This document shows positions 36,964 through 60,330 of a stretch of 64,000 bases of DNA, in pieces (within the stretch, counting starts at the first letter, position 1; every line of letters starts with the position of its first letter). Below the pieces are notes generated by a model. The model was not told the origin of the DNA. It saw only the letters and a list, made by a program, of their open reading frames with translations, and did no database searches. The position numbers and the translations under genes are program-made. Location of the stretch: positions 496,001 through 560,000 of the forward strand of contig NZ_JACJPL010000026.1 of the NCBI RefSeq assembly GCF_014696065.1. Reading direction: 5' to 3'. Source of the stretch: Leptolyngbya sp. FACHB-261. GTDB lineage: Bacteria; Cyanobacteriota; Cyanobacteriia; FACHB-261.

Positions 36964-37099
36964 AAGCTGAGCAATCTAGAAATGCACTGGCGGGGAGTTA
37001 TGCCATTGTGTCCCCTTGCCGGATCTCGCTGGATAGCGATGTCAGAGTCCCAGATAGTGCAGACCAAGCATGACGTGAACGATGGGGAGTTTTTATCGC

Positions 37100-39763: not shown

Positions 39764-42107
39764 GTTTCAACCCCTCAAAGGGATTTAGGTTCTTCGCGAC
39801 GTCCGGGCTGCAACGAAGCTAATTGCCACCGCCTAAGTTTCAATCCCTCAAAGGGATTTAGGTTCTTCGCGATCGGGCTTCATCGTGGTTGGCGACCGCG
39901 CAATGGAGTTTCAATCCCTCAAAGGGATTTAGGTTCTTCGCGACGCCCAATTGCCATAGAGAAAACCGGGTGTTTGCATGTTTCAATCCCTCAAAGGGAT
40001 TTAGCTTCTTCGCGACTATCTGAGGACTCTGTGATCCATAGCCCACCCACCCGTTTCAATCCCTCAAAGGGATTTAGGTTCTTCGCGACTGGGAACTGTG
40101 CGGTCGGCGCTCAGGCCGAACACGTGGTTTCAATCCCTCAAAGGGATTTAGGTTCTTCGCGACATTTACCACCCTCAGTAAAGGCACCATTAGTTATGTT
40201 TCAATCCCTCAAAGGGATTTAGGTTCTTCGCGACCTGGCCGAAATAAGCTAGCCGCTCAAAGGGATTTAGGTTCTTCGCGACTGCCTACGCTGACCTGCT
40301 CTACAAAGAATTGCTAGGCGTTTCAATCCCTCAAAGGGATTTAGGTTCTTCGCGACTCTAAATCGCTAAGGCTGATATCCTCAGTTAAATGCTCTGTTTC
40401 AATCCCTCAAAGGGATTTAGGTTCTTCGCGACAACCTATGATTTGCTGGTCACCACTCGCCGCAAAGTGGTTTCAATCCCTCAAAGGGATTTAGGTTCTT
40501 CGCGACACTTCAACCTCGATATGGGTGGCCTCTGGGGCAGCATGTTTCAATCCCTCAAAGGGATTTAGGTTCTTCGCGACTCTGGAGGTTGTACGACTCC
40601 GGACTACGTTATCGGTTTCAATCCCTCAAAGGGATTTAGGTTCTTCGCGACGTCCATTCTCATTAACGGGATAATGTGTAGTACAAGTTTCAATCCCTCA
40701 AAGGGATTTAGGTTCTTCGCGACGCTTGGATCCATGCGGTAGCCCCCAGGGGCGACGCTTTGTTTCAATCCCTCAAAGGGATTTAGGTTCTTCGCGACCT
40801 AGGGTGTTCCATCCGGGTATCTGCAAAAACCCAGTTTCAATCCCTCAAAGGGATTTAGGTTCTTCGCGACCTGTTCAGCTACTCGGGCGATAATCTCACC
40901 ACACTTGTTTCAATCCCTCAAAGGGATTTAGGTTCTTCGCGACCGCTGCCAGTGGATGTGCCGCTTGAGTAAGGGTGGGGTTTCAATCCCTCAAAGGGAT
41001 TTAGGTTCTTCGCGACTGCGGCGGCGGCGTCGTCTGGAGAGCGTAGCCCGGTGTTTCAATCCCTCAAAGGGATTTAGGTTCTTCGCGACATAGCCCCCTT
41101 GCGGCTCATCCGGGTAGGGGAACGTTTCAATCCCTCAAAGGGATTTAGGTTCTTCGCGACCAGCAGCAGCAGCAAATAGCAGACCAGGTACTGGCGTTTC
41201 AATCCCTCAAAGGGATTTAGGTTCTTCGCGACGATACTAGTACAAACGTTCTTAATCCGGTTAGAGCGGTTTCAATCCCTCAAAGGGATTTAGGTTCTTC
41301 GCGACTAGCATCGATGCGATATACGAACGGGTAAGAGCGAGAGTTTCAATCCCTCAAAGGGATTTAGGTTCTTCGCGACTGTTGCTCTGCGCGGTGTAAG
41401 CGTCTTGAGCATCTGTTTCAATCCCTCAAAGGGATTTAGTTAGGTTCTTCGCGACTTCCGCTTGCTGAAAAGCTGCTGCAATTGGGCTTCGTTTCAATCC
41501 CTCAAAGGGATTTAGGTTCTTCGCGACATTCGATACGCAGACGCTATTGAGCTATTGTCTCGTTTCAATCCCTTTGAGGGATTTAGGTTCTTCGCGACGC
41601 TCACTAGGCGATCCTCCATGCGCTGGCATCGCAGTTTCAATTCCTCAAAGGGATTTAGGTTCTTCGCGATAATCCGATTGCCTGCCCAGAAGCTCACTAC
41701 CCCCGAGTTTCAATTCCTCAAAGGGATTTAGGTTCTTCGCGATCTGTGGCGAGAGCAGCAATGCCAGACCAGAAGAGGTTTCAATCCCTCAAAGGGATTT
41801 AGGTTCTTCGCGACGACTTCAGTTTTGGCGCCGTCTACAGCGAAAACGTGTTTCAATCCCTCAAAGGGATTTAGGTTCTTCGCGACGTGTGTTTGTATTG
41901 TGTTTGTACTTTCATCAGTTCAGTTTCAATCCCTCAAAGGGATTTAGGTTCTTCGCGACCAGAATGCAGCCAATTCCCACTCTGCAAATGATGGGTTTCA
42001 ATCCCTCAAAGGGATTTAGGTTCTTCGCGACGGCTCAGCTAGTTAGCTTATAGGCTTCAATATGTCTGGTGTTTCAATCCCTCAAAGGGATTTAGGTTCT
42101 TCGCGAC
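39764..42107 (-). CRISPR. Orphan CRISPR array: 33 repeat units, 32 spacers
   Basis: 37-base repeats read on the plus strand as GTTTCAATCCC-TCAAA-GGGATTTAGG-TTCTTCGCGAC, with spacers of mostly 34-39 bases. Repeat starts run from 39764 to 42071. On the minus strand each repeat ends in ATTGAAAC, the typical 8-base 5' handle of class 1 crRNAs, and the central ATCCC-TTTGA-GGGAT forms the hairpin. That points to minus-strand transcription with the leader at the right (above 42107). Degeneracy is mainly at the left, the expected old end: the first unit has a C for T, 39837 ends in T, 39980 has a C for G, and 40256 is truncated. Other odd units are at 41415, 41562, 41634 and 41707. No cas gene is in the window. 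Confidence 0.98.
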
Positions 42108-50706: not shown

Positions 50707-51345
50707 ATGTCTCGTGCTGGCAGAAACCCACGAATGCTTGCCCTACAACGGCGGCTCAAAGCGTTCTATGCCTTTGGCGGAGCTATTGTCTTCGCAGGTG
50801 CCCCCTTCTATCTGGCCTCGCTCCATCTGGTTGCCATCTCCAGTGCTCTCTATTGGGGCGGCTTTGCCTTGGCGGGACTATGCGTTTTAACCGGTCTCAA
50901 CCTTTGGCAAAAAGCCGACCGTGCTGACCAGGGAGCCAGGGGAGAAGAAGCAGTTGCACTGGTGCTTGACACTCTTCGGACCAAAGGCTGGACAGTAGAG
51001 TATGGCCTGCGGGTCAAAGGCGTGGGCGATGTCGATGCTTTTCTCCAGTCCCCCCGAGGCAATGCCTATGTAGTCGAAGTGAAATCCCACGGTGGCCAGG
51101 TGCTCTCCGATGGACAAAGCCTGTACCGCCGCTTGCGCTCAGGGCACCAGCCCTTTGAAAAAGACTTTCTCAATCAGGCGATGCAGCAGGCACTGACCCT
51201 CAAGCGCGAGAAGCAATTGCGCTTTGTTACCCCTCTGGTTGTTTTCTCAAGAGCTACAGTCTCCGCCCCTCACAAACTACGGGGTGTCCATGTGCTCGGC
51301 AAAGCTGAGGTGGTGAAATATTTGCAACGGCTTGATGCGCAGTGA
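50707..51345 (+). CDS. NERD-domain protein with N-terminal membrane segments
   Basis: A 212-residue protein. Two hydrophobic helices (about 17-42 and 45-68) anchor it, and a NERD (nuclease-related) domain follows at about 78-210. The catalytic-type acidic residues are in VGDVDAFL, and Glu/Lys are in AYVVEVKSHGG, the D-x(n)-E-x-K pattern of the restriction-endonuclease-like fold. Other motifs are FEKDFLNQAMQQA and TPLVVFSRA. It lies 81 bases after the CHAT gene on the same strand. A nuclease role is plausible from the fold but unproven. Confidence 0.85.
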   Translation: MSRAGRNPRMLALQRRLKAFYAFGGAIVFAGAPFYLASLHLVAISSALYWGGFALAGLCVLTGLNLWQKADRADQGARGEEAVALVLDTLRTKGWTVEYGLRVKGVGDVDAFLQSPRGNAYVVEVKSHGGQVLSDGQSLYRRLRSGHQPFEKDFLNQAMQQALTLKREKQLRFVTPLVVFSRATVSAPHKLRGVHVLGKAEVVKYLQRLDAQ

Positions 51346-51470
51346 CCCAAGTTGACGCGCTCTGCACTCTGCTGCTAGAGCAGTTGCCCGATTGCCGTAT
51401 CGCACATCACCGTATCTGCTACGTGCTCTGGCGGCTGTGTTGGCAAGAATACAAGTTTCCGATACTCACC

Positions 51471-51726
51471 TCTACCTATAGGTAGAAGTCTGTATACACT
51501 TCTGATTATCTAATGGAGATGGAATTATCCATTCCACCAGTTGATTAGTCCCTGCCTTACCCGGGCGGGGATTTTTCTGTCGGGTTGCTGTATCCCAGAG
51601 GTTTCAGCAAAAGACCCTCAGCCGGAGGGTCAGCAGTTAACGGGTTCAGCCTTCGTACGCCCTCTGAAATGGTGCCTTTTCTGGTACGCGAGTACCAGAG
51701 GATCAAATACCTGGAACTCCAGGTAT
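51471..51726. ncRNA. Candidate structured RNA: chain of six stem-loops
   Basis: In the 706-base gap before the unknown gene at 52052, six stem-loops follow each other. They are: a 16-bp perfect palindrome TCTACCTATAGGTAGA (51471-51486); CCCTGCC...GGCGGGG with a T-tract (51550-51576); TTGCTG...CAGCAA (51585-51610); GACCCTC-AGCCG-GAGGGTC (51613-51631); CTGGTAC-GCGA-GTACCAG with a GNRA-type tetraloop (51681-51698); and ATACCTGG-AACT-CCAGGTAT (51707-51726). No known RNA family is recognised. A 61-codon ORF (51585-51770, plus) overlaps it and cannot be excluded as a small protein gene. Confidence 0.45.
51550..51576 (+). terminator. Rho-independent-like terminator
   Basis: CCCTGCC pairs with GGCGGGG (one G-U pair) around a 7-base loop and is followed by ATTTTT. 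It lies 204 bases after the NERD gene stop and within the hairpin chain, so it could end either the NERD transcript or a short RNA starting near 51471. Confidence 0.6.
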
Positions 51727-52051
51727 CTGCTACTCAACAGCACCAGCTTGATGGCTTCGGATACGTGTAGGTGCAGCCTCTCCCGGCCACGCCCTACTGA
51801 CAGCCAAAGTAAAAGCAGCCCCCGACCAGGTAGAGCTGCTTAACGTTGGACCTCGATCAGTTGGTATGCCTATAGAGTGCCGGTAGAACATAAATTGCAC
51901 CAGCTCAAAAAGTGCTCAATTTTTGTTCACAATCTGAAGGGGTAAACTGCTCACACTTCTTAACAGTTATAAATACAAATTGACTGAATCACGTTCAGCT
52001 AACTTACATACACTGGAAGGTAGAGAAAGGCATACATCAACGGGGATAGCT

Positions 52052-52594
52052 ATGAAGCTAGCTGGCACAGTGCTGGAAGTACTAGATTTTTCTGAGTATG
52101 AATACTCATTCATCGAAGATCACTGCAATGGTCTTGACCGGGTTGAATGCCTGGAACTAACGATGAAGGAGATTGACTTCGTAGAGAAAGTCAAGGTGAT
52201 AGCTAGCGAATGCCTGGACTGGCAGCATTTAAGCAAAGGCGACTTTATCCCAGAGCTAACCATTGAGCGCATCGCTGGGCAGAACTTAAGCCAGCAGCAG
52301 CGTGACCTGGCTTGCCTCTGCATCAAGAACCTGATCATGGACAGGACGGGGCTAGCTGCTGTGATTCAGCAAGATGGGCTCTTGCTGCTCGACGATAGCC
52401 AAACCGCCGCTAACGATTCGTTCTGGCAGAGTGTCCGTCTGCTCAAGGTCAGAGAGCGGCACGAATTCCTCCAAAAGCTTGACCCTAACTGCCTCACTGG
52501 TGCCCAACAGCAGAATCACGCTGAACTAATGGCTTTGACAGAGGCTTTTATGCGAGTGACCACAGAACTCTCGATTTTGAGAGCGATAGAGTAG
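52052..52594 (+). CDS. Unknown acidic protein downstream of the structured region
   Basis: A 180-residue soluble protein from the ATG at 52052 (GGGGATAG upstream). An in-frame extension to 51980 is open but lacks an RBS. It is acidic and mostly helical, with a segment LTMKEIDFVEKVKVIASECLDW, a middle part FIPELTIERIAGQNLSQQQRDLACLCIKNLI and a C-terminal LTGAQQQNHAELMALTEAFMRV. I recognise no family and no catalytic motif. It is a single gene ending at a strong terminator, preceded by the hairpin chain at 51.5 kb. Confidence 0.7.
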   Translation: MKLAGTVLEVLDFSEYEYSFIEDHCNGLDRVECLELTMKEIDFVEKVKVIASECLDWQHLSKGDFIPELTIERIAGQNLSQQQRDLACLCIKNLIMDRTGLAAVIQQDGLLLLDDSQTAANDSFWQSVRLLKVRERHEFLQKLDPNCLTGAQQQNHAELMALTEAFMRVTTELSILRAIE

Positions 52595-59707: not shown

Positions 59708-60058
59708 TTATAGCGAATTGGGGGACGCTCCATCAAAGCCTATCTCTGCTAGGGTTTAACGGTTGCTTACCCTAACTCTGGCCCAATTTCGCTTGCGCAA
59801 CGCCCATTGCTCTGCTAATCTTGGCTGCATTGCAAAAACTGGAGCTTTTGCCTATCGCCAATCATCAATAAACCGCTAAAAAATTTAGCGCTGCCGAGAA
59901 GCTATAAGTCAACTTCTGGGCAGCTAACCCCCCCACTGGAAAGACCCCAGTCAGGCGGCTAACGGGTGATTTTAACACCCTCCTAGCCACCCCGACTTTT
60001 CATGGTCAACTTTAAAACCAAAAGCAGGGTGGCTAATCATTGGGCGGTATTTCGGTAA

Positions 60059-60157
60059 GGGCGAGGCAACCTCGCCCCTACCCACAACCGCAAAATTCTA
60101 AACCCGTCGATTGCAACATGAATTCCGTAGGGGCAGGGTTTCCCTGCCCAGTGCAAC
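60059..60157. repeat. REP-like palindromic module, copy 1
   Basis: A 99-base unit starting with GGGCGAGGCAACCTCGCCC (stem GGGCGAGG/CCTCGCCC) and ending with a second stem GGGCAGG...CCTGCCC. It matches copy 2 over almost its whole length. The 59708-60058 stretch before it contains no gene. Confidence 0.85.
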
Positions 60158-60230
60158 ATTGCCGCAACCAAATTTCAAACCCCCTCGATTTCAATCATGA
60201 ATCTTGTAAGGGCCAAATAAGGGCCAAAAA

Positions 60231-60330
60231 GGGCGAGGCAACCTCGCCCCTACCCACGACTGCGAAATTCTAAACCTGTCAATTTCAATCATGAATCCTG
60301 TAGGGGCAGGGTCTCCCTGCCCGGTGCAAC
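60231..60330. repeat. REP-like palindromic module, copy 2
   Basis: A 100-base unit closely related to copy 1, with the same two palindromes and a diverged middle. Its right end overlaps the start of the small gene at 60291, so the module supplies that gene's start codon and first ~13 codons. Confidence 0.85.

What the first reader, a model, noticed from the sequence alone, without database searches (positions are those of the whole stretch)
51471..51726. Chain of six stem-loops before an unknown gene: candidate undescribed structured RNA
Directly visible: six inverted repeats in 256 bases, four of them perfect with 7-8-bp arms or a 16-bp palindrome. One is closed by a GCGA (GNRA) tetraloop and another is a terminator-like hairpin with a T-tract. 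Such density is far above what ordinary intergenic DNA shows. The following gene (52052-52594) is of no known family and is a lone unit with its own terminator, so an RNA-plus-protein or cis-regulatory module is possible. Repeat-element origin is the main alternative.
Basis: partly seen in the sequence, partly recalled or inferred. Interest (0 to 1): 0.62.

Follow-up and report, generated by a model that had tools for sequence, protein, structure and literature searches.

The report
Hairpin-rich spacer between two genes
A stretch of about 275 bases between two genes of a cyanobacterium is packed with real DNA palindromes, including two transcription-stop-like hairpins that face each other, but it exists in one copy with no recognisable relatives, so nothing yet shows that it is a functional RNA or that it belongs to the unknown gene that follows.

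Summary
Window 51471-51726 carries seven perfect hairpins with arms >=6 bp against 0.69 expected; 0 of 2000 shuffles match. MFE z is -5.7 on + and -5.15 on -. The block has no Rfam match and is single copy in its genome, so it is not a dispersed repeat.

No accepted relative was found in 388 cyanobacterial genomes, phages or plasmids. The one strong covariance-model match (L054, 38 bits) is largely built of that lineage's own repeats and shows no more 'compensatory' pairs than matches inside long open frames. Covariation is therefore untestable.

The link to gene 52052, an ORFan, is weak: a conserved operator-like direct repeat lies between hairpins and gene.

Best reading: a lineage-specific, palindrome-rich spacer where two transcription ends face each other, + terminator 51547-51577 and - terminator-like hairpin 51631-51609. 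A small RNA on either strand remains possible. The neatest sub-element is a 76-nt closed two-hairpin fold, 51670-51745. Transcription was not measured.

The parts
51471..51486 (.). perfect 16-bp palindrome TCTACCTATAGGTAGA; as RNA a 6-bp hairpin with UAUA loop, as DNA a possible binding site of a dimeric protein
51502..51548 (+). imperfect long hairpin (GATTATCTAATGG...GTTGATTAGTC)
51547..51577 (+). intrinsic terminator with T-tract; probable end of the NERD transcription unit or of a small + RNA starting near 51471
51609..51631 (-). terminator-like hairpin GACCCTC-CGGCT-GAGGGTC followed by TTTT on the minus strand, facing the + terminator
51670..51745 (.). 76-nt closed element: TGGTGC/GCACCA stem enclosing two perfect hairpins (51680-51699 with GCGA loop on +, 51707-51726)
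   Evidence: (z -5.83 on +, -4.79 on -)
51669..51770 (+). doubtful 33-aa ORF over the closed element; gene-like codon score but no homologue
50707..51345 (+). upstream NERD-domain gene (neighbour)
51898..51930 (+). conserved operator-like direct repeat between the hairpins and the ORFan (neighbour)
52052..52594 (+). downstream ORFan gene of 180 aa (neighbour); gene-like codon usage, no relatives found

Best explanation
The block is a lineage-specific, palindrome-rich noncoding spacer in which transcription ends from both sides. On the + strand, RNA that comes from the NERD gene (or starts just before 51471) passes two hairpins and stops at the intrinsic terminator 51547-51577. On the minus strand, RNA coming from the right passes the closed two-hairpin element 51745-51670 and stops at the terminator-like hairpin 51631-51609, about 32 bases away, tail to tail. 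The stems would act as transcription stops and as protection of RNA 3' ends; a short stable RNA (about 105 nt on +, about 135 nt on -) may be left over and may or may not have a job of its own. It is not the leader of gene 52052. Shown: the palindromes, both terminator-like signals, single copy, no known family. Inferred: transcription, termination, and any small RNA.
For: Two terminator-like signals on opposite strands facing each other (the region as a whole holds 3 where shuffles average 1.5, so the count alone is weak). The + terminator lies 200 bases after the stop of the NERD gene with no other + gene between. Stability about equal on both strands, as expected for DNA with signals on both. 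No copies, no Rfam family, no homologues. A conserved operator-like motif and a TATAAA lie downstream of the hairpins, which suggests the 52052 transcript starts after them.
Against: No transcription data. No annotated minus-strand gene feeds the minus-strand terminator, and no good promoter was found on either strand. Terminators alone do not account for the palindrome 51471-51486 or for the closed 76-nt element, so something more may be selected for.
Confidence: 0.45

Rival explanations
1. A new, lineage-restricted structured or small RNA gene: either about 51470-51577 on + (two hairpins plus terminator behind a weak promoter) or 51745-51609 on - (closed two-hairpin domain plus terminator), acting in trans or by binding a protein.
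For: Strong folding (z -4.12 for 51470-51578 +, -5.83 for 51666-51750 +, -2.88 for the 136-nt minus RNA). Each half ends in a terminator-like hairpin. Weak promoter-like TTGGCA-15-GATACT at 51440-51466 just before the first palindrome.
Against: No homologue, so no covariation. Both strands fold about equally well. The promoter match is below the stricter scan's criteria.
Confidence: 0.25
2. A DNA-level palindromic element: protein-binding sites or the decayed remnant of a small mobile or single-strand-transposed element.
For: Palindromes symmetric on both strands, one without a loop; a compact 76-bp element with closing inverted repeat.
Against: Single copy in its genome; no target-site duplication seen; no match in phages or plasmids.
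Confidence: 0.17
3. A tiny gene of 33 codons (51669-51770, +) whose codons happen to form the two perfect hairpins.
For: Codon score 0.266 bits per codon, like true genes of that length (0.255 +- 0.129; false frames -0.138 +- 0.186).
Against: No homologue in 388 genomes; no ribosome-binding site seen upstream; one of several frames looked at.
Confidence: 0.06
4. Leader RNA or cis-regulatory module of gene 52052.
For: The gene follows on the same strand.
Against: 325 bases between them; operator-like motif and TATAAA in between; a + terminator inside the chain.
Confidence: 0.05

Closest known systems
Intrinsic (Rho-independent) terminators and 3'-UTR hairpins
   Same: G+C-rich stems followed by T-runs, on + at 51547-51577 and on - at 51631-51609
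   Different: Accompanied by further palindromes that a terminator does not need (51471-51486, 51670-51745)
Cyanobacterial intergenic small RNAs such as Yfr2a (PMC2662882; transcribed from its own start 94 nt downstream of trxA, about 80 nt long)
   Same: Intergenic, downstream of a gene on the same strand, short, structured
   Different: The Yfr2 family is conserved across cyanobacteria and shown to be expressed; this block has no homologue and no Rfam match, and expression is unknown
REP/REPIN and other dispersed palindromic repeats (PMC3116915)
   Same: Dense short palindromes in intergenic DNA, equal on both strands
   Different: Defined by many copies; this block has one

Membership tests
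Intrinsic terminator pair (convergent) | G+C-rich hairpin followed by a T-run, on both strands, facing each other | tested here: met
   + 51547-51573 with T-tract, - 51631-51613 with TTTT
Intrinsic terminator pair (convergent) | RNA 3' ends at these places | not testable with these tools
   no transcript data
Known RNA family (Rfam 15) | match at the gathering score | tested here: not met
   no match in the block; only a sub-threshold Xoo2 match outside it, 51871-51807
Conserved structured RNA (new) | stems kept by compensatory changes in homologues | tested here: inconclusive
   no accepted homologue; the pair count for L054 is matched by hits inside long open frames
Dispersed palindromic repeat (REP/REPIN/MITE) | several copies in the genome | tested here: not met
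   one copy
CRISPR-associated RNA (tracr-like) | stretch complementary to the array's repeat (array at about 39764-42100) | tested here: not met
   best local score 9 (reverse complement) and 8 (direct); mean elsewhere 8.9 and 8.6
Leader RNA of gene 52052 | located in the transcript's 5' end | not testable with these tools
   transcript start unknown; motif and TATAAA between them argue against

The most novel reading that the evidence does not exclude
The closed two-hairpin element with the facing terminator (51745-51609, minus strand) is a new small RNA restricted to this deep cyanobacterial lineage, possibly bound by a lineage-specific protein.
Probability: 0.13. Interest if true: 0.4.

Novelty: new member of a known kind. 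Interest (0 to 1): 0.18.

Why it matters
If transcribed, it would be one more lineage-specific small RNA, in an order with a single representative among the genomes held here. As it stands, it mainly shows that hairpin density alone, even when highly significant, does not identify a functional RNA when no relatives are available, and that paired changes counted on covariance-model matches must be compared with matches known to be false.

Tried and rejected
Homologue L054 (38.3 bits, E 3.2e-6 for one genome) was not accepted. Its 5' half is a dispersed repeat of that lineage and its 3' half resembles another repeat there. Its strongest helix (CCCUUGCCCC/GGGGCAAGGG) is offset from the model's pairs. 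Its plain sequence similarity is no better than arbitrary window segments. Its kept and changed pairs are like those of matches inside long open frames. Its congeners have no credible match (G044 and G092 none, G080 one of 19.9 bits inside a 599-aa frame), and neither the 5' half (R2) nor the gene context is shared. The oddity of 38 bits against a runner-up of 21 remains, so homology is not fully excluded. Also rejected or empty: dispersed repeat; tracr-like RNA; phage or plasmid origin; coding frames other than the 33-aa one. ORFan 52052: no homologue and a structure model too poor to search with (mean pLDDT 46). NERD protein searches made for synteny gave no similar spacer. Counting G-U pairs gave no strand preference.

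Full report
What is there. The window lies in a 6.95-Mb cyanobacterial genome that is the only held member of its family and order. The hairpins sit in a 706-bp spacer between a NERD-domain gene (50707-51345) and an ORFan gene (52052-52594), both on the + strand. Counting perfect hairpins with arms of at least 6 bp gives 7 in 256 bases against 0.69 expected, and 0 of 2000 shuffles reach it. The folding energy is 5.7 (plus) and 5.15 (minus) standard deviations better than shuffles. Within the window's intergenic DNA this is the densest stretch, although duplicated hairpins near 60 kb give a z-score of the same size.

What it is made of. From left to right: a loopless palindrome (51471-51486), an imperfect hairpin (51502-51548), an intrinsic terminator for the + strand (51547-51577), a terminator-like hairpin for the minus strand (51631-51609), and a 76-nt closed element of two perfect hairpins inside a TGGTGC/GCACCA stem (51670-51745; z -5.83 on + and -4.79 on -). 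The stated end should be moved to 51745. The strands are about equally stable, so folding does not tell which, if either, is transcribed.

Is it known or repeated? There is no Rfam match in the block and no second copy in the genome. Phage and plasmid records hold nothing similar.

Are there relatives? BLAST against 59 relatives gave only short matches, none of them in the hairpin block itself apart from its own palindrome. Covariance models made from the single sequence (R1 for 51573-51742, R2 for 51460-51578) were run over 388 cyanobacterial genomes. R2 found nothing of note (best foreign match 24.6 bits, E 0.006 for one genome). R1 found one match of 38.3 bits in genome G069. I examined it at length and did not accept it. 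Its first half is a repeat common in that genome's relatives and its second half resembles another hairpin repeat there. Its strongest helix is offset from the model's pairs. Plain alignment does not set it apart from arbitrary sequence. The pair count looks impressive taken alone (13 pairs changed on both sides, reached by none of 500 shuffles), but three matches that lie inside long open frames (L057, L059, L060) show 10 to 11 such pairs. The search itself selects for them, so the count is not evidence.

Link to the following gene. The ORFan has gene-like codon usage (0.189 bits per codon; true genes 0.26, false frames -0.14) and no relative in Pfam, PHROGs, NCBIfam, PDB, plasmids, viral contigs or the searched genomes. 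Between the hairpins and this gene lies ACCAGCTCAAAAAGTGCTCAATTTTTGTTCAC (about 51898-51930). It is one of a set of sites with an 11-bp direct repeat of TGCTCA found at five places in this genome and in eight other cyanobacteria, with none for the control pattern. It looks like an operator. Followed by TATAAA at about 51968, it suggests that the ORFan's transcript starts downstream of the hairpins. This is inference from sequence.

How it most likely works. Two transcription ends face each other, with stems that stop polymerase and protect RNA 3' ends. The + terminator would close the NERD unit. The minus side implies a transcript that no annotated gene explains, and this is the best argument that a small RNA could be present. 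I give the convergent-end reading 0.45, a lineage-specific small RNA 0.25 (the two overlap in part), a DNA-level palindromic element 0.17, a tiny gene 0.06 and a leader of 52052 0.05. Nothing here measures transcription.

Comparison with what is known. It works like an ordinary terminator region. Small RNAs placed downstream of a gene with their own start are known in cyanobacteria (Yfr2a, PMC2662882), but that family is conserved and expressed, whereas neither can be shown here. Genus-restricted motifs without covariation support, and a multi-stem motif ending in a terminator that may be a 3'-UTR element, have been listed as weak candidates by others (PMC8632094); this block would rank below those, because it has a single representative.

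Verdict. The interpretation as an undescribed structured RNA remains open, and the module with 52052 is disfavoured. Interest is low because nothing sets it apart functionally.

Noticed in passing
window 51898-51930; loci L003, L007, L040-L052: A conserved site with consensus TTCCAGACCAAAAASTGCTCATTTTYTGCTCATTTTT (11-bp direct repeat of TGCTCA) occurs five times in this genome and in eight other cyanobacteria, control pattern 0. In several it lies just past the 3' end of a large gene with no Pfam match (L003, L040, L042, L043, L048; for L003). Probably the operator of an unnamed regulator; no match in viral contigs for the tighter pattern.
   Followed up: partly
window 59876-60322: A second hairpin-rich intergenic stretch (z -5.9): GGGCGAGGCAACCTCGCCC and GGGCAGGG-CCCTGCCC hairpins alternate and the pair is duplicated about 172 bases apart.
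   Followed up: no
window 39764-42100: CRISPR array with 37-nt repeat GTTTCAATCCCTCAAAGGGATTTAGGTTCTTCGCGAC and more than 30 repeats; no obvious cas gene among the long ORFs of the window (not searched with profiles).
   Followed up: no
window 36984-37060: CyVA-1 RNA (RF02965), 51.7 bits, on the + strand.
   Followed up: no
L091 490-561, L092 506-582, L093 456-502, L054 1588-1666: A dispersed hairpin repeat in genomes of one cyanobacterial genus (AAACTGTCAAA...GATAGCAA...TTGCTATC), which helped to make one distant model match look like a homologue.
   Followed up: partly
window 51807-51843: A further minus-strand terminator-like hairpin (AAGCAGC...GCTGCTTTTACTTT), the part of the spacer that gives the sub-threshold Xoo2 match.
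   Followed up: no
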